A DNA stretch of 64,000 nt from Devosia elaeis (GTDB taxonomy: Bacteria; Pseudomonadota; Alphaproteobacteria; Rhizobiales; Devosiaceae), in contig NZ_LVVY01000074.1 in assembly GCF_001650025.1 (NCBI RefSeq), positions 1 to 64,000 of the forward strand, in the 5' to 3' direction. How positions within the stretch are numbered: the stretch's first letter is position 1; every line of letters starts with the position of its first letter. The notes beneath the pieces are model-generated. The model did not search any database. It saw only the letters and a list, made by a program, of their open reading frames with translations, and had not been told where the DNA came from. The translations under genes and the position numbers were made by a program. This document shows positions 15,021-61,898 of the stretch, one piece after another.

Positions 15021-16493
15021 CTAGAGGCGGCCTGCGAGATAGGCTTCGAGCGTCGCGGCCGTGCCGTTTTTCCAAAGGAAATTCAGGCACTTGGTGAAAG
15101 TTTCCGTGAAAGCGGGCGCCTTGGCGAGGTCGCCATAGATGTCGGCCATCTCCAGCCAGGCGGCAGGATTGTCCTTCGCTTTCCGGGCCTGGGCGGTCAG
15201 CCGATCCCAGCTTGGATCGTTGGGTTCGATGACTGCGCCGCTATCGGTGGTGCCGTAGCAATATCGGCACCAGAATGCTGACACCAGGGCCAATCCGGTG
15301 AGCAGACTGTTAGCGTTGACCCTGTCCATAGCGCTCGGAATGATGAACTTTGGCTGACGATTGGAGCCATCGAGCGCGAGTCGACGGATCGTGTCGCCGA
15401 TCTTGGGATTAGCGAAGCGTTTTTCGCACATGGCGAAGTAGGCGCCGAGGTCGGTATCGGGCACCGGGGGCACGATGGGGATGATCTCCTCGGTCTCGAC
15501 CTTTTTGAGGAAGGCGGAGACGAGGGGGTGCTCCATGGCCTCATGGACGAAGTGGATGTCGAGCAACCCGGCCGGATAGGCAATGGTGGCGTGGCCGCCA
15601 TTGAGGATGCGGATCTTCATGTGCTCGTAGGGCGCGACATCGAGCACGAATTGCACCCCGACCTGTTCCAGTGCCGGGCGACCGGCGGGGAAATTGTCTT
15701 CGAGCACCCATTGCTTGAAGCTCTCGCAGAAGACCGGCCAGGCATCGTCGATGCCGAACCGCTCGGCGAGAAGATTTTTCTCGCGTTCCGAGGTGGCGGG
15801 GGTGATGCGGTCGACCATGCCATTGGGGAAGGCAACCGAAGACTTGACCCATTCGGCGAGGGCCGGATCGATCAGGGCGGCGAGGCCGGCGACGGCGTTC
15901 CGGGTGACGTGGCCATTGCCGGGGATATTGTCGCAGCTCATTACGGTGAAGGGCGCGATGCCGGCTTCGCGGCGCTTGACCAGCCCGGCGAGGATGAGGC
16001 CGAAGGCGGTTTTGGGCGTGGCGAAGTTCGCCGCATCCCAGGCGATATCGGGATGGGTGGGATCGAATTTCTGGCTGGCCGGATCGATGTAATAGCCGCC
16101 CTCGGTGATGGTCAGCGAGACAATGCGGATGGCGGGATCGGTCAGTGCGGCGATGACGGCCTGGCTGTCGCCGGGCTCGATGTAATCGACCATGGCGCCA
16201 GTGATGTGGGCGGCGCTGGTGTCGGCCTCCTGCTCGACCACGGAGGTGAGCCAATCCTGCTGGCGCAGGGCATCGCGCATGGCGGCGTCGGTGGCGCGGG
16301 TGCCGGCGCCGATAATGGCCCAGTCCCGACCCTCGCCGCGATTGAACAGGGCATCGAGATAGACCGCCTGATGGGCACGATGGAAATTGCCGACGCCGAA
16401 ATGGACGATGCCGGGGGTGAGATCGGCGCGACTGTATGAGGGCGTGGCGGCGGTTTGGATGGCGGGCAGGGCGGCGATGGAGAGTTGGGTCAT
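15021..16493 (-). CDS. mtlK: Mannitol 2-dehydrogenase-family polyol dehydrogenase
   Basis: A 490-residue long-chain polyol dehydrogenase. N-terminal NAD-binding GIVHFGVGNFHRAHQAVYLD, DNIPGNG in the middle, and the catalytic signature KIRILNGGHA (K-x4-N-x2-H) around residues 300-310. The family oxidises D-mannitol, D-arabitol or sorbitol to the 2- or 4-ketose in the cytoplasm. The pairing with a pentulose-type kinase leaves open whether the substrate here is a hexitol or a pentitol. A repeat block separates it from the ATPase gene upstream. Confidence 0.9.
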   Translation of the reverse strand: MTQLSIAALPAIQTAATPSYSRADLTPGIVHFGVGNFHRAHQAVYLDALFNRGEGRDWAIIGAGTRATDAAMRDALRQQDWLTSVVEQEADTSAAHITGAMVDYIEPGDSQAVIAALTDPAIRIVSLTITEGGYYIDPASQKFDPTHPDIAWDAANFATPKTAFGLILAGLVKRREAGIAPFTVMSCDNIPGNGHVTRNAVAGLAALIDPALAEWVKSSVAFPNGMVDRITPATSEREKNLLAERFGIDDAWPVFCESFKQWVLEDNFPAGRPALEQVGVQFVLDVAPYEHMKIRILNGGHATIAYPAGLLDIHFVHEAMEHPLVSAFLKKVETEEIIPIVPPVPDTDLGAYFAMCEKRFANPKIGDTIRRLALDGSNRQPKFIIPSAMDRVNANSLLTGLALVSAFWCRYCYGTTDSGAVIEPNDPSWDRLTAQARKAKDNPAAWLEMADIYGDLAKAPAFTETFTKCLNFLWKNGTAATLEAYLAGRL

Positions 16494-16526
16494 AGTGCGG
16501 AGCTCGATGCGAGGGCGGTCGGCTCC

Positions 16527-16676
16527 CTCCCCCCATGAGGGGGAGGGTTGGGGTGGGGGGTGGTGCCGTGGACGCTGAATTTCAGGCGCACTAGACGGTG
16601 GACCCCCTCCCCAGCTTTGCTACGGCCCGTTGGCCCTAGCGTCGCTACCCTCCCCTCAAGGGGGAGGGTGGGCAGA
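16527..16676. repeat. Palindromic repeat block, CCCTCCCC family
   Basis: Starts CCCTCCCCCCATGAGGGGG and ends CCCTCCCCTCAAGGGGGAGGG on the same strand, giving two internal hairpins plus long-range pairing. It fills the junction between the transporter ATPase and mtlK genes. Confidence 0.8.
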
Positions 16677-16701
16677 ACCGATAGTTGGGTGCCCTGCATC
16701 A

Positions 16702-17697
<996 letters not shown>

Positions 17698-17748
17698 GGT
17701 TTAGTCCTCCGAAGAGATGAAATAGAGCGCTGCGGGTGACGCCTGCGC

Positions 17749-17866
17749 CTCCCTCCCCCTTGAGGGGAGGGAATGAGGGTGGGGGTTCAGGAAGACTGGC
17801 GAGCGCCGGACTCGTTGTGAGGCCGGAACCCCCACCCCTTCCCCTCCCCTCAAGGGGGAGGGGTAC
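17749..17866. repeat. Palindromic repeat block, CCCTCCCC family
   Basis: CCCTCCCCCTTGAGGGGAGGG at the left and CCCCTCCCCTCAAGGGGGAGG at the right, with a GGGTGGGGGTTC/GAACCCCCACCC inner pairing. Located between the permease and ATPase genes of the polyol operon. Confidence 0.85.
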
Positions 17867-17897
17867 ACAGGAGCCGCGGCATTGGTGACTGTTCGCA

Positions 17898-18728
17898 TCA
17901 CTTCACCGCCCCAAAGGTCAGGCCGCGCACAAGCTGCTTCTGGCTGAACCAGCCGAGCAGCAGGATGGGGGCGATGGCCAGGAGCGAGGCGGCGGAGAGT
18001 TTGGCGAGGAAGAGGCCTTGCGGTGAGGAGAACGAGGAGATGAAGGCCGTCAGCGTGCCGGCGCGGCCGGAGGTGAGCGTGATGGTCCAGAAGGCCTCGT
18101 TCCAGGCGAGAATGACGTTGAGCAGCAGCGTCGAGGCGATGCCGGGAATGGCCATGGGCACGAGGACATGGGTGATTTCGTTCCAGAGTTCGGCCCCGTC
18201 CATGCGGGCGGCTTCGAGGATATCGACCGGGATTTCCTTGAAATAGGTGTAGAGCATCCAGATGATGATCGGCAGGTTGATCAGCGTCATGATCAGGGTG
18301 AGGCCGTGCAGCGTGTCGAGCAGGCGCAGGTCGCGGAAGATCAGGTAGATCGGGATCAGGACGCCGACGGCGGGCATCATCTTGGTGGAGAGCATCCACA
18401 TCAGGATGTCTTTCGTCCGCTTGGTGGGGGCGAAGGCCATGGACCAGGCGGCGGGAATGGCGATCACCAGGCCGAGCAGGGTGGAGCCGAAGGAGACGAT
18501 GATCGAATTGGTGGCGTGCTTGATATAGTCGGAACGATCCTGCACGGCGCCGAAATTTTCCAGCGTGAAGGTTTCCGGCAGGAAGGTCGGCGGGGCGGCG
18601 ATGGCCTCGGCCTCGGTCTTGAAGGCCGTGAGGATGGTCCAGAGGATCGGCGAGAACAGCAGCAGGGCGATGGCCCAGGCGAGGATGGTGAAGCCGATGC
18701 GGGTGGAAGTGGGGACGCGGCGGGCCAT
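17898..18728 (-). CDS. Polyol ABC transporter permease (SmoG/MalG type)
   Basis: A 276-residue inner-membrane protein with six hydrophobic segments and the EAA motif EAARMDGAELWNEITHVLVP. N-terminal LAWAIALLLFSPILWTILTAFKTEAEA and the C-terminal WFSQKQLVRGLTFGAVK are typical of the MalG/SmoG branch. GGAG lies 9 bases upstream of the ATG. It pairs with the MalF-like permease whose gene precedes it. Confidence 0.92.
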   Translation of the reverse strand: MARRVPTSTRIGFTILAWAIALLLFSPILWTILTAFKTEAEAIAAPPTFLPETFTLENFGAVQDRSDYIKHATNSIIVSFGSTLLGLVIAIPAAWSMAFAPTKRTKDILMWMLSTKMMPAVGVLIPIYLIFRDLRLLDTLHGLTLIMTLINLPIIIWMLYTYFKEIPVDILEAARMDGAELWNEITHVLVPMAIPGIASTLLLNVILAWNEAFWTITLTSGRAGTLTAFISSFSSPQGLFLAKLSAASLLAIAPILLLGWFSQKQLVRGLTFGAVK

Positions 18729-54638: not shown

Positions 54639-54785
54639 ATGCGTAACCTGCTTCTCAATATCGGCGGCATCGAACACCATTGGGTGCAGCACAACCTGCC
54701 CTGGCTGGCTATGCTCGCCATCCTGTTCGGGCTGGAGCGGGACGAAGCGGCGGCCGGCGACAGGTCCATTGGGCAGGATGGCTAG
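54639..54785 (+). other. Short reading frame of doubtful status
   Basis: A 48-codon ATG frame with a moderately hydrophobic middle (WLAMLAILFGLE). It has no Shine-Dalgarno and its stop overlaps the convergent puuE-uraD stop by 3 bases. It may be a chance frame within the decayed region that starts at 54488. Confidence 0.25.
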
Positions 54786-56200
54786 GGCAGCAGCGCCTTG
54801 AGCCGCAGCAGGGCGATCCGCTCCACCTGGCCGCAGGCCGTCGCGAATTCCTCCTCCGGCGTATTGGCGATGCGGCGCCGGAAATTCTCCAGGATCGACG
54901 CCTTGGTGTGATCGCGCACGGCGATGATGAAGGGGAAGCCGAACTTTTCGACATAGGCCTTGTTGAGCGCGGTGAAGTTTTCGCGCTCCGCGTCGGTGAG
55001 GGCGTCGAGCCCGGCCGAGGCCTGTTCGGCGGTTGAATCCGCGGTGAGGCGCTTGGCGGCGGCCAGCTTGCCGGCAAGGTCGGGATGGGCGCGCAGCACC
55101 GCCAGCCGCTCCTCCGGCGTCGCCATGCGGAACTGGCTGCGGAGCGCGAAATGGAGCCCGACGGCATTGTCGTTGGCCGGGCCCATTTCCGCCTCCCAGG
55201 CGCGCTCGGCGATCCAGGGGGAATGCTCGAAGATCGAGCCGTAACGGGCGACAAAATCGTCCTTACCGAGCTGGCTAGGAATGGTTTCGGGCGCGATATA
55301 GGGATGTTCGCGGGCCCAATGCTCGGCAATCTCCAGGCGTGTGGGCACCCAGATCTTCTCGAAGCCTTGGATGTAGTCGACGAACTTCCTGAGGCCCTGG
55401 AAGCGGCCGGGCTGGCCGACTAGGCGGCAATGCAGGCCGATGGACATCATCCTCGGCGCGCCGGCCTGGCCTTCGGCATAAAGGCAATCGAAGCTGTCCT
55501 TGAGGAAGGTGAAATATTCCTCGCCATTGTCGAAGCCTGGCGCGGTGACGAAGCGCATGTCGTTGGTGGACAGCGAATAGGGGATGATGAGCTGCGGCTG
55601 ACCGCCGATAACCCGCCAGTGAGGCAGGTCGTCGTCATAGGTGTCGGAGATATAGGCGAAGCCGCCGGCCTCGGCGACGAGATCGATGGTGTTGAGGCTG
55701 GAGCGGCCGGTATACCAGCCGCGCGGACGGGCGCCAGTGGCGATCTCGTGCAGGCGGATGGCCTCGGCGATCTCCCGGCGTTCCTCGTCCGGCGCCATGT
55801 CCTTGTGCTGCACCCATTTATGGCCGTGGCTGGCGATTTCCCAGCCGGCCTCCTGCATGGCGGCCAATTGGGTCGGGGCGCGCATCAGGGCAGAGGAGAC
55901 ACCATAGACGGTGACCGGCAGACCGGCTTCGGTGAACAGCCGATGCAGCCGCCAGAAGCCGGCCCGGGCGCCATATTCATACATCGATTCCACATTGGCG
56001 TGGCGCTGGCCGGGCCAGGGCGCGGCGCCGAGCACATCCACGAGAAAGGCTTCCGAGGCGGCGTCGCCATGGAGAATGTTGTTTTCGCCCCCCTCCTCGT
56101 AATTGAGCACGAATTGCACCGCCACATGTGCGCCGCCGGGCCAATTGGCGTGGGGCGGGGTCTGGCCGTAACCGTGCATGTCACGAGGATAGCGGTTCAT
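54782..56200 (-). CDS. Fused allantoinase (PuuE) and OHCU decarboxylase (UraD)
   Basis: 472 residues from ATG 56200 (MNRYPRDMHGYGQ, the standard PuuE N terminus). Residues 1 to about 305 form a polysaccharide-deacetylase-fold allantoinase (VQFVLNYEEGGEN, NVESMYEYGARAGFWRLHRL, ASHGHKWVQH, SIGLHCRLVGQPGR). Residues from about 311 form UraD (FEHSPWIAERAW, LRAHPDLAGKLA, LNKAYVEKFGFPFIIAVRDHTK). The protein would take OHCU to allantoin and on to allantoate, two consecutive steps. Divergent from hiuH, which supplies OHCU. Confidence 0.93.
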   Translation of the reverse strand: MNRYPRDMHGYGQTPPHANWPGGAHVAVQFVLNYEEGGENNILHGDAASEAFLVDVLGAAPWPGQRHANVESMYEYGARAGFWRLHRLFTEAGLPVTVYGVSSALMRAPTQLAAMQEAGWEIASHGHKWVQHKDMAPDEERREIAEAIRLHEIATGARPRGWYTGRSSLNTIDLVAEAGGFAYISDTYDDDLPHWRVIGGQPQLIIPYSLSTNDMRFVTAPGFDNGEEYFTFLKDSFDCLYAEGQAGAPRMMSIGLHCRLVGQPGRFQGLRKFVDYIQGFEKIWVPTRLEIAEHWAREHPYIAPETIPSQLGKDDFVARYGSIFEHSPWIAERAWEAEMGPANDNAVGLHFALRSQFRMATPEERLAVLRAHPDLAGKLAAAKRLTADSTAEQASAGLDALTDAERENFTALNKAYVEKFGFPFIIAVRDHTKASILENFRRRIANTPEEEFATACGQVERIALLRLKALLP

Positions 56201-56270
56201 CGAAACTCTCTTGGCGTCGCAATGGCGCAAGTCTAGCGCGCCGATGGCCGCAAACAAGATGCCCAAAAAT

Positions 56271-56284
56271 GGACCATCTGGTAA
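56271..56284. promoter_or_regulatory. Candidate operator between puuE-uraD and hiuH
   Basis: GGACCATCTGGTAA contains ACCA-tc-TGGT. With the preceding T it reads TGGACC-N4-GGTAAA, close to TGGACC-N4-GGTCAA at 42810-42825. Roughly 70 bases from each start codon. Confidence 0.4.
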
Positions 56285-56353
56285 AAAATGTGCATTGCGC
56301 CGCCGGGCTGATACGATAATCTCTTTCCAGGGGACGATTTTGGGAGCAGCAGC

Positions 56354-56704
56354 ATGGCGGGCGGTCGCCTGACGACACACGTACTCGACACCATGCAGGG
56401 CAAGCCGGCGCGCGGCATGCGGCTGGAACTGCATTTCGTGCATGGCGACCACACCCATCACCTGCTCGACAGCTATACCAACGAGGATGGCCGCGTGGAC
56501 CGGCCGCTGCTGGACGAGGATTTCCAGCAGGGCGAATTCGAAATCCGCTTCCATGTGGGGCAATATTTCGAGCGGCTGGGGGTGGAGATCGAGACGCCCT
56601 TCCTCGATGTCGTGCCGATCCGCTTCACCATATCGGAAGACCGGCACTACCACGTGCCGCTGCTGGTCAGCCCATTTGCTTATTCGACCTATCGGGGGAG
56701 TTGA
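56354..56704 (+). CDS. hiuH: 5-hydroxyisourate hydrolase (transthyretin-like)
   Basis: A 116-residue HIUase: N-terminal LTTHVLDTMQGKPARGM (active-site His and the family signature), central Arg in GRVDRPLL, HYHVPLLVSPFAYSTYRGS at the C terminus with the diagnostic YRGS tetrapeptide. It hydrolyses 5-hydroxyisourate to OHCU for UraD. No signal peptide; the unusual MAGG start gives 7 residues before the first strand. Confidence 0.95.
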   Translation: MAGGRLTTHVLDTMQGKPARGMRLELHFVHGDHTHHLLDSYTNEDGRVDRPLLDEDFQQGEFEIRFHVGQYFERLGVEIETPFLDVVPIRFTISEDRHYHVPLLVSPFAYSTYRGS

Positions 56705-56726
56705 GATGGCGTTCATGTTTGCCAAT

Positions 56727-56858
56727 AGGCCCCTCACCCCGGCCCTCTCCCCGGAGGGACGAGGGGGCGACGGCTACGGCCCCCAAGTTTCAAATGATGC
56801 TGCGCTATCGGTTCCTGCGTCCCCTCGCCCCTCCGGGGAGAGGGCTAGGGTGAGGGGG
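56727..56858. repeat. Repeat block, CTCTCCC family, before xdhA
   Basis: GCCCCTCACCCCGGCCCTCTCCCCGGAGGGACGAGGGG and, inverted, CCCTCGCCCCTCCGGGGAGAGGGCTAGGGTGAGGGGGC. The right end stops 3-8 bases before the xdhA start codon. Confidence 0.9.
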
Positions 56859-56865
56859 CTTTAGG

Positions 56866-58332
56866 ATGGTCGAAGTCGCAAACGCCATCCGCTTCCTGCT
56901 CAATGGCGAGGAGATCAGTCTCACCGATGTGGCGCCCGATCTGACCCTGCTCGATTGGCTGAGGCTGGAGCGGCGCCTGCGCGGGTCCAAGGAGGGTTGC
57001 GCGGAAGGCGATTGCGGAGCCTGCACCGTTCTGGTCGGGCGGCTGGCGGGCGACGAGATCATCTATGATTCAGTGACCGCCTGTATCCGCTTCGTCGCGA
57101 GTCTCCATGGCACGCATGTGGTGACCATCGAGCACTTGCGCGGCGAGAACGGCGCGTTGCATCCGGTGCAGCAGGCCATGGTCGATCATCATGGCAGCCA
57201 GTGCGGGTTCTGCACGCCGGGCTTCGTCATGAGCCTTTACGGGCTCTGGATGCGCGATCCCGATCCGTCGCGCAACGCCATCGAAAAAGCGCTGCAGGGC
57301 AATCTCTGCCGCTGCACCGGCTATGCGCCGATCATCCGCGCCGGCCAGGCGATTTCCAGCTATGGCCAGCCGCAGGGCGATCCGCTCTGGGCCGAGCGCA
57401 TTGCGGTGAAAGACAGGATCAGGGCGATCCATGACGGGCGGCGGGTCGAGGTCGGCACGGGGGAGAACCGGATCATCATTCCGGCCAGCCTCGACGATTT
57501 CGCGGCATTCTATGCGGAGAATCCCGAGGCCCGGATCGTGGCGGGCTCGACCGATGTGGGGCTGTGGGTCACCAAATTCATGCGCCGCATCGGGCCGGTC
57601 ATCTTTATCGGTCACCTGCCGGAATTGAAGCGGATCGCCGAAAACGACAGCGAAGTGCGCTTCTATGCCGGGGTGACCTATTCGGAGGCGCTGCCGGTCA
57701 TCCAGGCCAATTTCCCGCAATTGGGGGAATTGTGGAACCGCTTCGCGGGCGAACAGGTGCGCAATATGGGCACGATCGGCGGCAATATTGCCAATGGTTC
57801 GCCCATCGGCGATACGCCGCCCCCCTTCATTGCGCTGGGCGCCAAGCTGCATCTGCGCCGGGGCGAGCATCGGCGCGAGATCAAGCTGGAAGACTATTTC
57901 CTGGCCTATGGAAAACAGGACCGCCAGCCGGGCGAATTCGTGGAAAGCATCACCATCCCGTTGCTGCCGGCGGGAGAAACATTCGCGACCTATAAGATTT
58001 CCAAGCGGCGCGAAGAGGATATCTCGGCGCTGTGCGGCGCGTTTCGCGTCTTCGTCAACGATGCCGGCATTGTGGGCATGGCGCGCATCGCCTTTGGTGG
58101 CATGGCGGCGACGCCCAAGCGGGCGCGGGCGGTCGAGGCGGCCTTGGTCGGAAAGCCCTGGACGATGGACAGCGTCGAAACGGTGCTGCCGGCTTTCGCC
58201 GAGGATTATCAACCGATTTCCGACATGCGCGCTTCGGCCGAATACCGGCTGCTGGCGGCGCAGAACCTGCTCAAGCGGTTTTTCTTGGAGACCCAGGGGC
58301 AGGGCGAGCGGCTGAAGCGGGAGGTGGCGTGA
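56866..58332 (+). CDS. xdhA: Xanthine dehydrogenase small subunit (FeS/FAD)
   Basis: A 488-residue subunit. Two [2Fe-2S] domains: Cys45, Cys50, Cys53, Cys73 (SKEGCAEGDCGACTVLVG) and Cys113, Cys116, Cys148, Cys150 (CGFCTPGFVM, GNLCRCTGYAPI). FAD domain from about residue 190 with ARIVAGSTDVGLWV and NMGTIGGNIANGSPIGDTPP. Carries electrons from the molybdenum subunit to NAD. Start codon 56866 follows a repeat-derived GGTGAGGGGG. Confidence 0.95.
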   Translation: MVEVANAIRFLLNGEEISLTDVAPDLTLLDWLRLERRLRGSKEGCAEGDCGACTVLVGRLAGDEIIYDSVTACIRFVASLHGTHVVTIEHLRGENGALHPVQQAMVDHHGSQCGFCTPGFVMSLYGLWMRDPDPSRNAIEKALQGNLCRCTGYAPIIRAGQAISSYGQPQGDPLWAERIAVKDRIRAIHDGRRVEVGTGENRIIIPASLDDFAAFYAENPEARIVAGSTDVGLWVTKFMRRIGPVIFIGHLPELKRIAENDSEVRFYAGVTYSEALPVIQANFPQLGELWNRFAGEQVRNMGTIGGNIANGSPIGDTPPPFIALGAKLHLRRGEHRREIKLEDYFLAYGKQDRQPGEFVESITIPLLPAGETFATYKISKRREEDISALCGAFRVFVNDAGIVGMARIAFGGMAATPKRARAVEAALVGKPWTMDSVETVLPAFAEDYQPISDMRASAEYRLLAAQNLLKRFFLETQGQGERLKREVA

Positions 58333-58344
58333 TGGTTGAGCTTG

Positions 58345-58556
58345 GACCGCACTTCCCTTCTCCCCTTGAGGGAGAAGGTGCCCGAAGGGCGGATGAGGGG
58401 TTTCTTCCTGCGATTGTGGCCAGCGCAGCACCCCTCACCCTAGCCCTCTCCCCGGAGGGGCGAGGGGACCGATCCAGTTTGGTGCTGGGCCGTGTCAAAA
58501 TCGCCGACCTGGCTCCCTCGCCCCTTCGGGGAGAGGGCTGGGGTGAGGGGGCTTTC
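58345..58556. repeat. Repeat blocks, CTCTCCC family, between xdhA and xdhB
   Basis: A short unit CTTCTCCCCTTGAGGGAGAAG (from 58357) plus a full block from GCACCCCTCACCCTAGCCCTC to CGGGGAGAGGGCTGGGGTGAGGGGGC. The right end abuts the xdhB start with GGTGAGGGGGCTTT in Shine-Dalgarno position. No gene in these 226 bases. Confidence 0.9.
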
Positions 58557-58558
58557 GC

Positions 58559-60889
58559 ATGAACAAGCACGAAGCCCCTATCAATCTCGCCGTCCTCCAC
58601 ACCGGCACCCGCCATGACAGCGGCCCCAAGCATGTCACCGGGACGGCGGAATATATCGACGACATGATCGAGCCCGTGGGCACGATGCATGCCTATCTCG
58701 GGCTTTCCACCCGGGCGCATGCCGAGATCGTCTCGATGGATTTTTCGGCAGTGCGAGCAGCGCCGGGGGTGATCGGCGTGCTGACGGCGGAAGACATTCC
58801 GGGCGAGAACGATGTGTCGCCCAGCCACAAGCATGACGAGCCGATCTTCGCTGTGGGCAAGGTGCAGTTTTGGGGGCAGCCGGTCTTTGCGGTCATCGCC
58901 GAAACGCGTGACGCGGCGCGGCGGGCGGCGCAATTGGCGAAAATCGACTATGCCGACCTTGACTGGATTGCCGATGTCCGCGCTGCACAGGCTGCTGGCG
59001 GCAGGCTGGTGACCGAGCCGTTGAAGCTGGAGCGGGGTCAGGTTGAGGCGGGACTCGCGGCGGCGCCGCGGCGGCTCCAGGGCGCCATCGCCATCGGCGG
59101 GCAGGACCATTTCTACCTCGAAGGCCAGATCGCCATGGCGGTGCCGGGCGAGGACGAGGATGTGGTGATCCATTCCTCCACCCAGCATCCGAGCGAAGTG
59201 CAATTGATGGTCGCGGCGGTGCTGGGCATCCGGCACAATGCGGTGACGGTCAATGTGCGCCGCATGGGCGGGGGCTTCGGCGGCAAGGAAACGCAGGGCA
59301 ATCTCTTCGCGGCGGTTGCCGCCTTGGCGGCCAAGAAATGGAACCGCGCCTGCAAGATCCGCCCTGACCGGGACGACGATATGCAGTCTACCGGTAAAAG
59401 GCACGATTTCGTCGTCGACTACGACGTCGGCTATGACGAGAGCGGCAAAATTCTCGCCGTCGATGCCGTCTATGGCACGCGGGCCGGGTTTTCCTCGGAC
59501 CTGTCCGGCCCGGTTTCCGACCGGGCCTTGTTCCACGCCGACAATGCCTATTTCTATCCGGCGGTGCGGGTGCGCTCGGAGCCGCTCTATACCAATACCG
59601 TGTCCAATACGGCCTTCCGCGGCTTTGGCGGGCCGCAGGGCATGATGGGGGCGGAGCGGTGGATCGAGGACATCGCCTATGCCTTGGGCAAGGATCCGCT
59701 CGATATCCGCAAGGCCAATTTCTACGGTACCGACAAGGACAATGTGACGCCCTATCACCAGGTGGTGGAGGACAATATCGTCCACCGCGTCGTGGATGAG
59801 CTCGAGGCCTCGTCCGATTACCAGGCGCGGCGCAAGGCAATCATTGATTTCAACAAGACCAGCACGGTGGTGAAAAAAGGCATCGCGCTGACGCCGGTGA
59901 AGTTCGGCATCTCCTTCACCGCCACCTGGTACAACCAGGCCGGGGCGCTGGTGCATGTCTACAAGGATGGCTCGATCCATCTCAGCCATGGCGGCACCGA
60001 GATGGGGCAGGGGCTCTATATCAAGGTCGCTCAGGTGGTGGCCGATGCGTTCGGCGTCAATCTCGACAACATCAAGATCATGCCGACCTCGACCGGCAAG
60101 GTGCCCAACACCTCGGCTACGGCGGCGTCGTCCGGCTCCGACCTCAACGGCATGGCGGCCTGGGATGCCTGCGAGCAGATCAAGGCGCGCCTGCTGGCCC
60201 ATGCGGCCAAGCTCTACCAGGCCGAAGAAAGTGATTGCCATTGGGTGCAGGGCGGCATGACGATCGGGCGCGAATTCGTGCCCTTCGCCGAGCTTTGCGC
60301 CTCGGCCTATCTCAACCGCGTGCAGCTTTCCGCCGCCGGTTTCTACAAGACGCCGAAAATCCACTGGGATCGCGCCACCGGCAAGGGACATCCCTTCTAT
60401 TACTTCGCCTATGGCGCCTCGGTCAGCGAGGTGAGCGTGGACACGTTGACCGGCGAATATAACGTGGATCGGGTGGATATCCTGCACGATGTGGGCAAGT
60501 CGCTGAACCCGGCCATCGATATCGGCCAGATCGAGGGCGGTTTCATCCAGGGCATGGGCTGGCTGACGAGCGAGGAACTGGTCTGGGACGACAAGGGGCA
60601 ATTGCGAACCCATGCGCCCTCTACCTACAAGATCCCGCTGGCCTCCGATGTTCCGCCGGTCTTCAACGTGAAACTGGCGGAATGGTCGGTCAATCGCGAG
60701 CCGACCATCGGGCGGTCCAAGGCGGTGGGCGAGCCGCCCTTCATGCTGGCGATCAGCGTGGTCGAGGCGCTGGGCATGGCCGTGGCGAGCGTTGCGGATT
60801 ATCGGGTGGCGCCCCGGCTCGATACGCCGGTGACGCCGGAGCGGGTGCTGATGGGCGTCGAGCGGATGAAGCGGGAGGCGCGGGGGTGA
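58559..60889 (+). CDS. xdhB: Xanthine dehydrogenase large subunit (molybdopterin)
   Basis: A 776-residue molybdopterin subunit. Features: GTAEYIDDM near the N terminus, GGGFGGKETQ (Moco contact), TAFRGFGGPQGMMGAERW with the substrate-positioning Arg, GGTEMGQGLYIKV, and the catalytic Glu in KAVGEPPFMLAISV near residue 735. Hydroxylates hypoxanthine and xanthine to urate in the cytoplasm with XdhA. Length is normal for the split bacterial enzyme. Confidence 0.96.
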   Translation: MNKHEAPINLAVLHTGTRHDSGPKHVTGTAEYIDDMIEPVGTMHAYLGLSTRAHAEIVSMDFSAVRAAPGVIGVLTAEDIPGENDVSPSHKHDEPIFAVGKVQFWGQPVFAVIAETRDAARRAAQLAKIDYADLDWIADVRAAQAAGGRLVTEPLKLERGQVEAGLAAAPRRLQGAIAIGGQDHFYLEGQIAMAVPGEDEDVVIHSSTQHPSEVQLMVAAVLGIRHNAVTVNVRRMGGGFGGKETQGNLFAAVAALAAKKWNRACKIRPDRDDDMQSTGKRHDFVVDYDVGYDESGKILAVDAVYGTRAGFSSDLSGPVSDRALFHADNAYFYPAVRVRSEPLYTNTVSNTAFRGFGGPQGMMGAERWIEDIAYALGKDPLDIRKANFYGTDKDNVTPYHQVVEDNIVHRVVDELEASSDYQARRKAIIDFNKTSTVVKKGIALTPVKFGISFTATWYNQAGALVHVYKDGSIHLSHGGTEMGQGLYIKVAQVVADAFGVNLDNIKIMPTSTGKVPNTSATAASSGSDLNGMAAWDACEQIKARLLAHAAKLYQAEESDCHWVQGGMTIGREFVPFAELCASAYLNRVQLSAAGFYKTPKIHWDRATGKGHPFYYFAYGASVSEVSVDTLTGEYNVDRVDILHDVGKSLNPAIDIGQIEGGFIQGMGWLTSEELVWDDKGQLRTHAPSTYKIPLASDVPPVFNVKLAEWSVNREPTIGRSKAVGEPPFMLAISVVEALGMAVASVADYRVAPRLDTPVTPERVLMGVERMKREARG

Positions 60890-60908
60890 AGTTGGTGGGC
60901 CACGCCTG

Positions 60909-61036
60909 TAGACCCCTCACCCTAGCCCTCTCCCCAAAGGGGCGAGGGGATCGATTGCGGGTTTGGCAATATCGAGCCCCGATCACTGAGCAGACTCCCT
61001 CGCCCCTCCGGGGAGAGGGCTGGGGTGAGGGGGGCT
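60909..61036. repeat. Repeat block, CTCTCCC family, between xdhB and xdhC
   Basis: GACCCCTCACCCTAGCCCTCTCCCCAAAGGGGCGAGGGG to CCCTCGCCCCTCCGGGGAGAGGGCTGGGGTGAGGGGGG. Its right end lies 4-10 bases before the xdhC ATG. Confidence 0.9.
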
Positions 61037-61040
61037 TGCG

Positions 61041-61898
61041 ATGAGCGCCACCGATCTCGCCAATTTCCTCACCGCAAATCCCGATGTGATTGCCTGCGAA
61101 CTCACCTTTGTCCGGGGCTCATCGCCGCGCGAGCAGGGGACGTTCATGCTGGTGGGCCAGGAGGCTATTTTCGGTACGATCGGCGGCGGGGCGCTGGAAT
61201 ATATGGTGATCGAGCATGCGCGCCGCCTGATCGCCGAGGGCCGCGCCGAGGCGGTCATGGATGTGCCGCTGGGCCCGGAAATCGGGCAGTGTTGCGGTGG
61301 GCGGGTCAAGGTAGGGCTGCGATTTGCGGACCAGGCGCTGCGCCGGGAGCTGGCCGAGCGGATGGCGGCCGAAGAAGCAAAGGCTTGCCACGTCTATATT
61401 TTCGGAGCCGGACATGTCGGGCGGGTGCTGGCGCAAATCCTGGCGCTGCTGCCGGTGCGGGTCGAGGTGATCGATACGCGGCAGGACGAACTGGACCTGC
61501 TGGCGCCCTTTATTCCCTTTCGGCGCGTGGCGATGCCCGAGGCTTTGGTGCGTTCGGCGCCGTCCGGCAGCGCCTTCGTCATCGTGACCCATGACCACGC
61601 GCTGGATTTTCTCATTGCCAATGAAGCACTTGCGCGGAAAGACGCAAGCTATGTCGGCATGGTCGGGTCGCGAACCAAGCGAGGGAAATTCGCGCGCTGG
61701 TTCGTGGAGCAGGGCGGCGATCCGGCACTGCTGGAGCGGTTGGTTCTGCCGATCGGGGCGCAAGGGCTTGGGGATAAACGACCTTCGGTGATTGCGGCAC
61801 TGGCGGCAGCCGAGATTATGGTCCACATTGGGGAACGGGAAGCGTCTGTCGAGCATGTGCCCACCCCCAGGAACATGGGGGTGGCGAGTGGACATTGA
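61041..61898 (+). CDS. xdhC: XdhC, molybdenum cofactor chaperone for xanthine dehydrogenase
   Basis: A 285-residue XdhC: N-terminal domain with ELTFVRGSSPREQGTFMLV and GGGALEYMVIEHARR, the PEIGQCCGGRVKVGLRF cysteines, then a Rossmann domain VYIFGAGHVGRVLAQILA, and VGMVGSRTKRGKFARWF. It binds and sulfurates Moco and inserts it into XdhB. Third gene of the xdh operon. The transporter gene begins 1 base after its stop, or overlaps it if GTG 61888 is used. Confidence 0.94.
   Translation: MSATDLANFLTANPDVIACELTFVRGSSPREQGTFMLVGQEAIFGTIGGGALEYMVIEHARRLIAEGRAEAVMDVPLGPEIGQCCGGRVKVGLRFADQALRRELAERMAAEEAKACHVYIFGAGHVGRVLAQILALLPVRVEVIDTRQDELDLLAPFIPFRRVAMPEALVRSAPSGSAFVIVTHDHALDFLIANEALARKDASYVGMVGSRTKRGKFARWFVEQGGDPALLERLVLPIGAQGLGDKRPSVIAALAAAEIMVHIGEREASVEHVPTPRNMGVASGH

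What the first reader, a model, noticed from the sequence alone, without database searches (positions are those of the whole stretch)
56727..61041. One repeat family supplies the ribosome binding site of xdhA, xdhB and xdhC
Seen: each gene starts just after the right end of a CTCTCCC-family repeat: GGTGAGGGGGCTTTAGG-ATG, GGTGAGGGGGCTTTCGC-ATG and GGTGAGGGGGGCTTGCG-ATG. The GAGGGGG sits 7-9 bases before each ATG and no other Shine-Dalgarno is present. The same strand can pair with the left arm of the repeat (CCCCTCACC), so the site can be hidden in a hairpin. Inference: repeat insertion has replaced the native sites and may couple or tune translation of the three subunits.
Basis: partly seen in the sequence, partly recalled or inferred. 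Interest (0 to 1): 0.6.

Follow-up and report, generated by a model that had tools for sequence, protein, structure and literature searches.

The report
Repeat-borne relay ORFs bridge operon genes
In this Devosia operon, repeats have pushed neighbouring genes apart, and each repeat is crossed by a tiny reading frame that starts at the last gene's stop codon and stops at the next gene's start codon, so ribosomes can probably be handed on as if the repeat were not there.

Summary
In detail: xdhA, xdhB and xdhC each start 6-7 nt after the GAGGGG(G) end of a two-armed repeat, and that end pairs well with the anti-Shine-Dalgarno. The arm is the known PIT/TM motif of E. coli (1-3 base differences). 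The native sites were not replaced: SDs at the 3' ends of uraH, xdhA and xdhB remain, and each now opens a mini-ORF (53, 77 and 53 codons with stop) that crosses the insert and stops at the next start. In 61 Devosia xdh loci, 65 junctions carry inserts of 20 nt or more, of several repeat families; 63 of 65 are bridged this way, 16 of 16 at xdhA-xdhB. The pattern recurs in three other operons (32 of 37 inserts) and in a 1.24 Mb sample of this genome (22 of 38 repeat-bearing overlap gaps, against 2 and 5 in the other frames). Substitutions show no codon-position bias, so frame and stop, not peptide, seem to be kept. Most likely the mini-ORF relays ribosomes across the insert. The nearest precedent is the mycobacterial MIRU; this is an element-independent variant. 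Translation is inferred, and the rule is not established outside Devosia.

The parts
56354..56704 (+). uraH (hydroxyisourate hydrolase), upstream gene of junction 1
   Evidence: Pfam Transthyretin/HIUase 1e-36
56693..56700 (+). retained native SD CGGGGGAG, now in front of mini-ORF 1
   Evidence: the same sequence precedes xdhA directly in most relatives with tight junctions
56706..56864 (+). mini-ORF 1 (ATG to TAG, 53 codons with stop); starts 1 nt after the uraH stop and stops 1 nt before the xdhA ATG
56730..56859 (+). two-armed PIT/TM repeat r1
   Evidence: right arm 1-2 bases from E. coli copies in PMC4666352 Table 1
56866..58332 (+). xdhA
   Evidence: Pfam Fer2_2, FAD_binding_5, CO_deh_flav_C
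58319..58325 (+). retained native SD GGGAGGT at the 3' end of xdhA
58332..58562 (+). mini-ORF 2 (77 codons with stop): TGATG overlap with the xdhA stop, ATGA overlap with the xdhB start
58353..58400 (+). second repeat (CTTCTCCCC..GATGAGGGG) inside the same insert
   Evidence: similar stretches seen by eye in inserts of relatives
58431..58551 (+). two-armed PIT/TM repeat r2
58559..60889 (+). xdhB
   Evidence: Pfam MoCoBD_1, MoCoBD_2, Ald_Xan_dh_C
60873..60878 (+). SD-like GGGAGG at the 3' end of xdhB, in front of mini-ORF 3
60886..61044 (+). mini-ORF 3 (GTG to TGA, 53 codons with stop): GTGA overlap with the xdhB stop, ATGA overlap with the xdhC start
60913..61034 (+). two-armed PIT/TM repeat r3
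61041..61898 (+). xdhC
   Evidence: Pfam XdhC_CoxI, XdhC_C
16490..16702 (-). another bridging mini-ORF over repeats at a co-directional junction in the window (genes from crude calls)
17701..17898 (-). another bridging mini-ORF, its stop ending 3 nt before the next called start

Best explanation
The ancestral operon probably had tight junctions (xdhA-xdhB overlapping as TGATG or ATGA). Repeats of several families inserted there and moved the downstream start away, typically by 100-350 nt. Each insert kept, or was selected to have, a reading frame that starts at a start codon on or next to the upstream stop (served by the old SD) and stops on or next to the new downstream start. A ribosome that finishes xdhA re-initiates on the mini-ORF, translates through the repeat and so melts its hairpin, terminates at the xdhB start codon and re-initiates there, helped in this genome by an SD that the repeat end supplies. 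The peptide itself is probably irrelevant. Shown: anatomy, tight state in relatives, frame conservation across repeat families, genomes and operons. Inferred: that the mini-ORFs are translated and that re-initiation is the selected function.
For: Tight junctions (gap under 20 nt) in 55, 45 and 18 of 61 rows; 44 of the 45 xdhA-xdhB ones overlap by 1 or 4 nt. Bridged inserts: 6 of 6, 16 of 16, 41 of 43. Gap length is 1 mod 3, as the two overlaps require, in 15 of 16 and 38 of 43. Within 12 nt of the start, 69 frames end in the 65 inserts, 63 inserts being bridged; within 8 nt a non-bridging frame ends in one insert. Inserts hold different repeat families, by eye. Insert presence needs at least 4, 12 and 7 changes on the XdhA+XdhB tree; 13 of 14 insert clusters are bridged throughout against 5.0 expected. 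At uraH-xdhA, where 5 of 6 insert-bearing starts are ATGG and not ATGA, four or five different stop positions do the job, which suggests selection rather than a fixed insertion footprint. Own genome: 22 of 38 repeat-bearing NTGA/TGATG gaps end in the overlap frame at the next start, against 2 and 5 in the other frames; 4 of 46 (4, 3) in repeat-free NTGA gaps, 4 of 82 (2, 4) in repeat gaps without overlap, 22 of 243 (18, 28) in the rest. Three further operons: 5 of 6, 7 of 7, 20 of 24, other frames 1 and 0, 0 and 0, 1 and 1. The SD is predicted buried without a ribosome. A reporter study found that about 20 nt between genes almost abolishes coupling (abstract of PMC10666635).
Against: No translation data. 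Two xdhC junctions are not bridged: L081, and L100, one nt from bridged L102. Substitutions by codon position are 914, 1037 and 1007 (all pairs of related inserts, not independent), so no coding signature. Predicted structure still pairs the repeat SD when the left arm is left out (0.05-0.16 unpaired), so melting the repeat may not be enough. Outside Devosia the rule is not established: in the named-genome set 5 of 11 and 19 of 30 spaced xdh junctions are unbridged; non-Devosia alone 3 of 8 and 5 of 24 bridged, several unbridged ones without start/stop overlap or with doubtful start choice. A second Devosia gave 1 of 1 and a Mesorhizobium 2 of 4 eligible gaps. The three extra operons were picked because this genome is bridged there; without the own rows they give 29 of 34. 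In the own genome 16 of 38 eligible gaps are not bridged; gene calls were crude.
Confidence: 0.78

Rival explanations
1. The repeat end is a stand-alone ribosome binding site switched by the repeat hairpin; the mini-ORF is incidental.
For: Strong SD pairing at all three starts and predicted burial.
Against: Frame bridging is conserved in 63 of 65 inserts whereas a repeat end near the start is seen in 21 of 65; in the own sample only the three xdh arm ends of 23 sit within 12 nt of a called start.
Confidence: 0.1
2. The frame is a by-product of how the elements insert: they target and duplicate NTGA start/stop sites, as suggested for MIRUs, with an in-frame element.
For: Start and stop overlaps flank most xdhB and xdhC inserts; a near-duplicate of SD, stop and start flanks the uraH-xdhA insert in L066, L070 and L073 (read by eye).
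Against: Inserts run from 40 to 349 nt and families differ, yet the frame holds; mini-ORF ends lie outside the repeats; at ATGG starts other stops are used; I saw no clear target duplication at most junctions.
Confidence: 0.2
3. The mini-ORF is kept to cover C-rich repeat RNA with ribosomes and so prevent Rho-dependent polarity, not for re-initiation.
For: The left arm is pyrimidine-rich, which resembles Rho loading sites (inference from recall).
Against: Repeat gaps without start/stop overlap are not bridged above the other frames (4 of 82, against 2 and 4), though many of those pairs may not share an operon.
Confidence: 0.2
4. The mini-ORFs encode functional small proteins.
For: Conserved presence of a frame.
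Against: No Pfam family at E 0.001 in 3 of 3 peptides; peptides differ between repeat families; no codon-position bias.
Confidence: 0.03

Closest known systems
MIRU, mycobacterial interspersed repetitive units (as described in PMC12548453, passages read; the original MIRU paper not seen)
   Same: A short repeat at a start codon whose ORF is coupled to the gene there with -4 spacing; said to allow insertion with minimal impact.
   Different: Here several different repeat families do it, mini-ORF ends lie outside the repeats, the host is Devosia, and conservation across many inserts points to selection on frame rather than one element's design.
PIT / TM(ECO) intrastrand-triplex motif (PMC4666352, passages read)
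   Same: The right arms differ from E. coli copies 18 and 23 of that paper's Table 1 by 1-3 bases; inverted pairs occur there too; intergenic.
   Different: That paper found no trend in distance to ORFs and no hint of a general regulatory role; here the pairs sit within an operon 6-7 nt before starts and are crossed by mini-ORFs.
Enterobacter sp. 638 palindromes CCCTCTCCC..GGGAGAGGG (PMC2869309, passages read)
   Same: Same core palindrome.
   Different: Reported as often at 3' ends of genes with a presumed terminator role.
Translational coupling by termination-reinitiation at ATGA/TGATG overlaps (PMC10666635 abstract, PMC12548453 passages)
   Same: Uses the same -4 and -1 overlaps.
   Different: Here two stop/start contacts in series, joined by a repeat-borne relay ORF.

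Membership tests
PIT/TM repeat | 34-37 nt motif CCCTC(T/G)CCC..GGG(A/T)GAGGG..GGGTGAGGG | tested here: met
   right arms of r1-r3 differ by 1-3 bases from two copies in Table 1 of PMC4666352; own-genome scan of a 23-nt part gives 27 matches with at most 1 mismatch, 44 with at most 3 against 27 for the reversed control at 3
PIT/TM repeat | inverted pairs in some loci, intergenic location | tested here: met
   three inverted pairs r1-r3 between genes
PIT/TM repeat | folds into an intrastrand DNA triplex | not testable with these tools
   no triplex assay available
MIRU | ORF in the repeat coupled to the neighbouring gene by start/stop overlap | tested here: met
MIRU | MIRU sequence family of mycobacteria | not tested
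   no MIRU sequence was compared; the host is Devosia, so it is filed as MIRU-like in working only
MIRU | one element with its own ORF inserting at start codons | tested here: not met
   different repeat families by eye, mini-ORF ends outside the repeats
Translationally coupled gene pair | -4 or -1 start/stop overlap or very short spacing | tested here: met
   of the six mini-ORF ends in the window's operon four overlap the neighbouring gene and two lie 1 nt from it
Translationally coupled gene pair | downstream translation depends on upstream translation | not testable with these tools
   needs reporters or ribosome profiling
Rfam RNA element | match to a known family | tested here: not met
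   no match at E 0.1 or better in 56300-61200

The most novel reading that the evidence does not exclude
In this lineage DNA of any repeat family can settle in a translationally coupled junction only if it is read as a relay ORF closing both stop/start contacts. Operon inserts are thus filtered by reading frame alone, giving dozens of unannotated relay ORFs per repeat-rich genome whose sequence does not matter, and a natural test of how far a terminated ribosome can travel.
Probability: 0.5. Interest if true: 0.75.

Novelty: new variant of a known kind. Interest (0 to 1): 0.6.

Why it matters
Whether a ribosome can cross long gaps between coupled genes is debated. These loci are repeated natural experiments: gaps of mostly 100-350 nt (59 of 65 xdh inserts) occur at junctions that are tight in relatives, and nearly all are bridged in frame. 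They also show how repeats can enter operons without breaking subunit balance, suggest a class of small ORFs whose function would be translation itself rather than the peptide, and warn that intergenic repeats between operon genes may be translated.

Tried and rejected
Peptide function: Pfam and codon-position counts gave nothing. A known RNA family: none. A genome-wide habit of arm ends serving as SDs: rejected, 3 of 23 exact arm ends in the own sample, all in xdh. Stronger SDs at displaced starts: not general; at xdhB the insert-bearing starts have weaker SDs than tight ones (median -8.35 against -13.5), at xdhC stronger (-8.6 against -6.45), at xdhA equal (-8.7, -8.6). Target-site duplication: looked for by eye; clear only in three related loci. 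Generality: a second Devosia (400 kb) had only one eligible repeat gap. Literature: nine searches of the open-licence PMC library; among the titles and abstract starts listed I saw none on repeat inserts bridged by mini-ORFs outside mycobacteria. The original MIRU paper was not among them and subscription papers are mostly not held.

One search stopped on a script error after the first junctions; one search repeats it in full. In one search the start of mini-ORF 2 was entered one base too low; one search gives the right frame. In one search the tree was built but its display failed; one search shows it. One search is a looser count that also admits TTG (repeat gaps 23 of 50 with overlap, 3 of 70 without); searches are the stricter one used here.
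Full report
WHAT IS THERE. The window lies in a 3.88 Mb draft genome of 151 contigs. Its same-genus relatives are Devosia: named Devosia contigs found have the same lengths as contigs of those genomes (for instance 377725, 790078 and 309791). The region holds uraH, xdhA, xdhB and xdhC in one direction (Pfam). Each xdh start follows, by 6-7 nt, the GAGGGG(G) end of an inverted pair of 36-nt arms. The quoted sequences are exact. The arm is the PIT/TM motif: the three right arms differ by 1-3 bases from two E. coli copies listed in PMC4666352 (passages read, and 66).

The repeat end does look like a good SD: -10.6, -10.6 and -11.1 kcal/mol against CACCUCCUUU, in the top 4-6% of called starts. It is predicted to be buried: P(unpaired) 0.03 or less in the folded leader, and still only 0.05-0.16 when the left arm is left out. 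But this is not a habit of the repeat. Of 23 exact arm ends in 1.24 Mb of this genome, only these three lie within 12 nt of a called start.

WHAT WAS MISSED. Each repeat is crossed by a mini-ORF: ATG 56706 to TAG 56864, ATG 58332 to TGA 58562, GTG 60886 to TGA 61044. The second and third overlap the upstream stop (TGATG, GTGA) and the downstream start (ATGA); the first starts 1 nt after the uraH stop and stops 1 nt before the xdhA start. The SDs before the first two (CGGGGGAG, GGGAGGT) are those that directly precede xdhA and xdhB in relatives with tight junctions; for the third (GGGAGG) several tight relatives look alike by eye.

COMPARATIVE TEST. XdhB was sought in 75 same-genus genomes and 73 had it, own included. 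Regions of 60 of the 72 relatives were fetched; the 12 left out were mostly fragmentary or at contig ends, three lay lower in the ranking. With the own locus this gives 61 rows, all resolved at each junction. Tight (gap under 20 nt): 55, 45 and 18. Inserts of 20 nt or more: 6, 16 and 43. Bridged: 6, 16 and 41. Gap length is 1 mod 3 in 15 of 16 and 38 of 43 cases at the last two junctions, which is what a start overlap at one end and ATGA at the other require; a plain multiple-of-three insertion into a -1 or -4 junction would give 2. Within 12 nt of the start 69 frames end in the 65 inserts; within 8 nt a non-bridging frame ends in one insert, and L077 has two bridging frames. By eye the inserts hold different families: PIT/TM pairs, CTTCTCCCC..GATGAGGGG, GTCATTCCCGCGAAAGCGGGAATC, CCTGAGCCTGTCGAAGG, CCCCCACCC..GGGTGGGGG, and a 40-nt insert with no evident repeat.

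INDEPENDENCE. On a tree of XdhA plus XdhB (quick method) insert presence needs at least 4, 12 and 7 changes, with 8 forced by well supported branches at xdhA-xdhB. Crude clustering gives 14 insert clusters, 13 bridged throughout, against 5.0 expected if frame were random (binomial p about 1e-5). Rows are related, so these are rough guides.

GENOME-WIDE TEST. In 1,237,245 bases of this genome with 1118 crude gene calls, 409 co-directional gaps measure 40-450 nt. Of 38 that hold a repeat and have NTGA or TGATG at the upstream stop, the overlap frame ends within 8 nt of the next start in 22 and the other two frames in 2 and 5. Repeat-free NTGA gaps: 4 of 46 against 4 and 3. Repeat gaps without overlap: 4 of 82 against 2 and 4. 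The rest: 22 of 243 against 18 and 28. Of the 29 endings in the first class 22 are in the overlap frame, p 3e-6. Two of the 22 are xdh junctions. uraH was missed by the gene caller, so junction 1 is not in this count.

OTHER OPERONS. Three bridged junctions of this genome, of seven printed, were followed in the 30 best loci each of 35, 65 and 71 matching genomes out of 75, own included. A molybdopterin oxidoreductase-like gene: 12 unusable, 12 tight, 6 inserts, 5 bridged. A permease pair: 23 tight, 7 inserts, 7 bridged. A third pair: 6 tight, 24 inserts, 20 bridged. The other two frames end there in 1 and 0, 0 and 0, 1 and 1. Gene names here are recalled from sequence, not tested. Leaving out the own row in each, 29 of 34 are bridged.

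RESULTS AGAINST. Two xdhC junctions are unbridged: L081, and L100, which differs from bridged L102 by a net 1 nt. Four of the 24 inserts of the third pair and one of six in the first are unbridged. Sixteen of the 38 eligible own-genome gaps are unbridged. Outside Devosia the picture is mixed: in 79 usable of 80 named loci per junction, 11 and 30 have spacing of 20 nt or more, and 6 and 11 are bridged; 3 and 6 of these are Devosia, species already counted above, which leaves 3 of 8 and 5 of 24. Three Mesorhizobium xdhA-xdhB inserts are bridged, while several Mesorhizobium xdhB-xdhC spacers of about 60 nt without start overlap are not. A second Devosia sample gave 1 of 1 and a Mesorhizobium sample 2 of 4 eligible gaps. 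Substitutions between related inserts show no third-position excess.

MECHANISM. In this genome bridging exceeds the other frames at overlap junctions with repeats and not elsewhere. It holds across repeat families, tolerates different peptides, and at uraH-xdhA, where ATGA is rare, is achieved by stops at four or five different positions. That fits selection for passing the ribosome on. Reporter work found that about 20 nt between genes almost abolishes coupling (PMC10666635, abstract). A review describes RNA-unfolding and ribosome-scanning models (PMC12548453, passages); both would use the mini-ORF, the first by melting the repeat hairpin, the second by delivering the ribosome. The repeat-derived SD then probably helps: repeat ends 4-12 nt from the start occur in 21 of 65 inserts. 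Translation is not shown.

NOVELTY. The same review says that MIRUs insert at start codons with an ORF coupled at -4 spacing. The working is therefore known in mycobacteria as a property of one kind of element. New here, as far as I could search, is that different repeats do it, repeatedly, in several operons of another phylum (recalled taxonomy), with the frame evidently under selection. I saw no such report in the listings of nine searches of the library.

Noticed in passing
window 16490-16702 (-) and 17701-17898 (-): Two more repeat-crossing mini-ORFs that bridge co-directional called genes in the same window.
   Followed up: partly
L163, minus strand, about 18394-18553: A PIT/TM inverted pair between two genes elsewhere in this genome (a nitrate or nitrite assimilation-like operon, name recalled) is bridged by a TGATG-to-ATGA mini-ORF; of 18 usable loci 12 are tight, 5 bridged and 1 unbridged.
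   Followed up: yes
window 56730-61034; L077: All three xdh repeats have the same orientation and the same 8 nt from arm core to ATG but loops that look unrelated; another Devosia (L077) has the same 8-nt layout before xdhA.
   Followed up: no
L066, L070, L073 at uraH-xdhA: SD, stop and start codon appear as an imperfect near-duplicate on both sides of the insert, as in a target-site duplication.
   Followed up: no
xdhB-xdhC and the third gene pair, various loci: The 15-25 nt between the overlap start codon and the left repeat arm look alike across different repeats (ATGGGGGC.., VRxVVxxA..), perhaps an older insert whose repeat was later swapped.
   Followed up: no
window 56822-61032 against E. 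coli copies in PMC4666352: The arm differs by only 1-3 of 36 bases between Devosia and E. coli, which calls for horizontal spread or strong constraint.
   Followed up: partly
window 54782-56737 (-): The reverse-strand ORF of the next gene stays open across uraH, which probably made the simple gene caller miss uraH.
   Followed up: no
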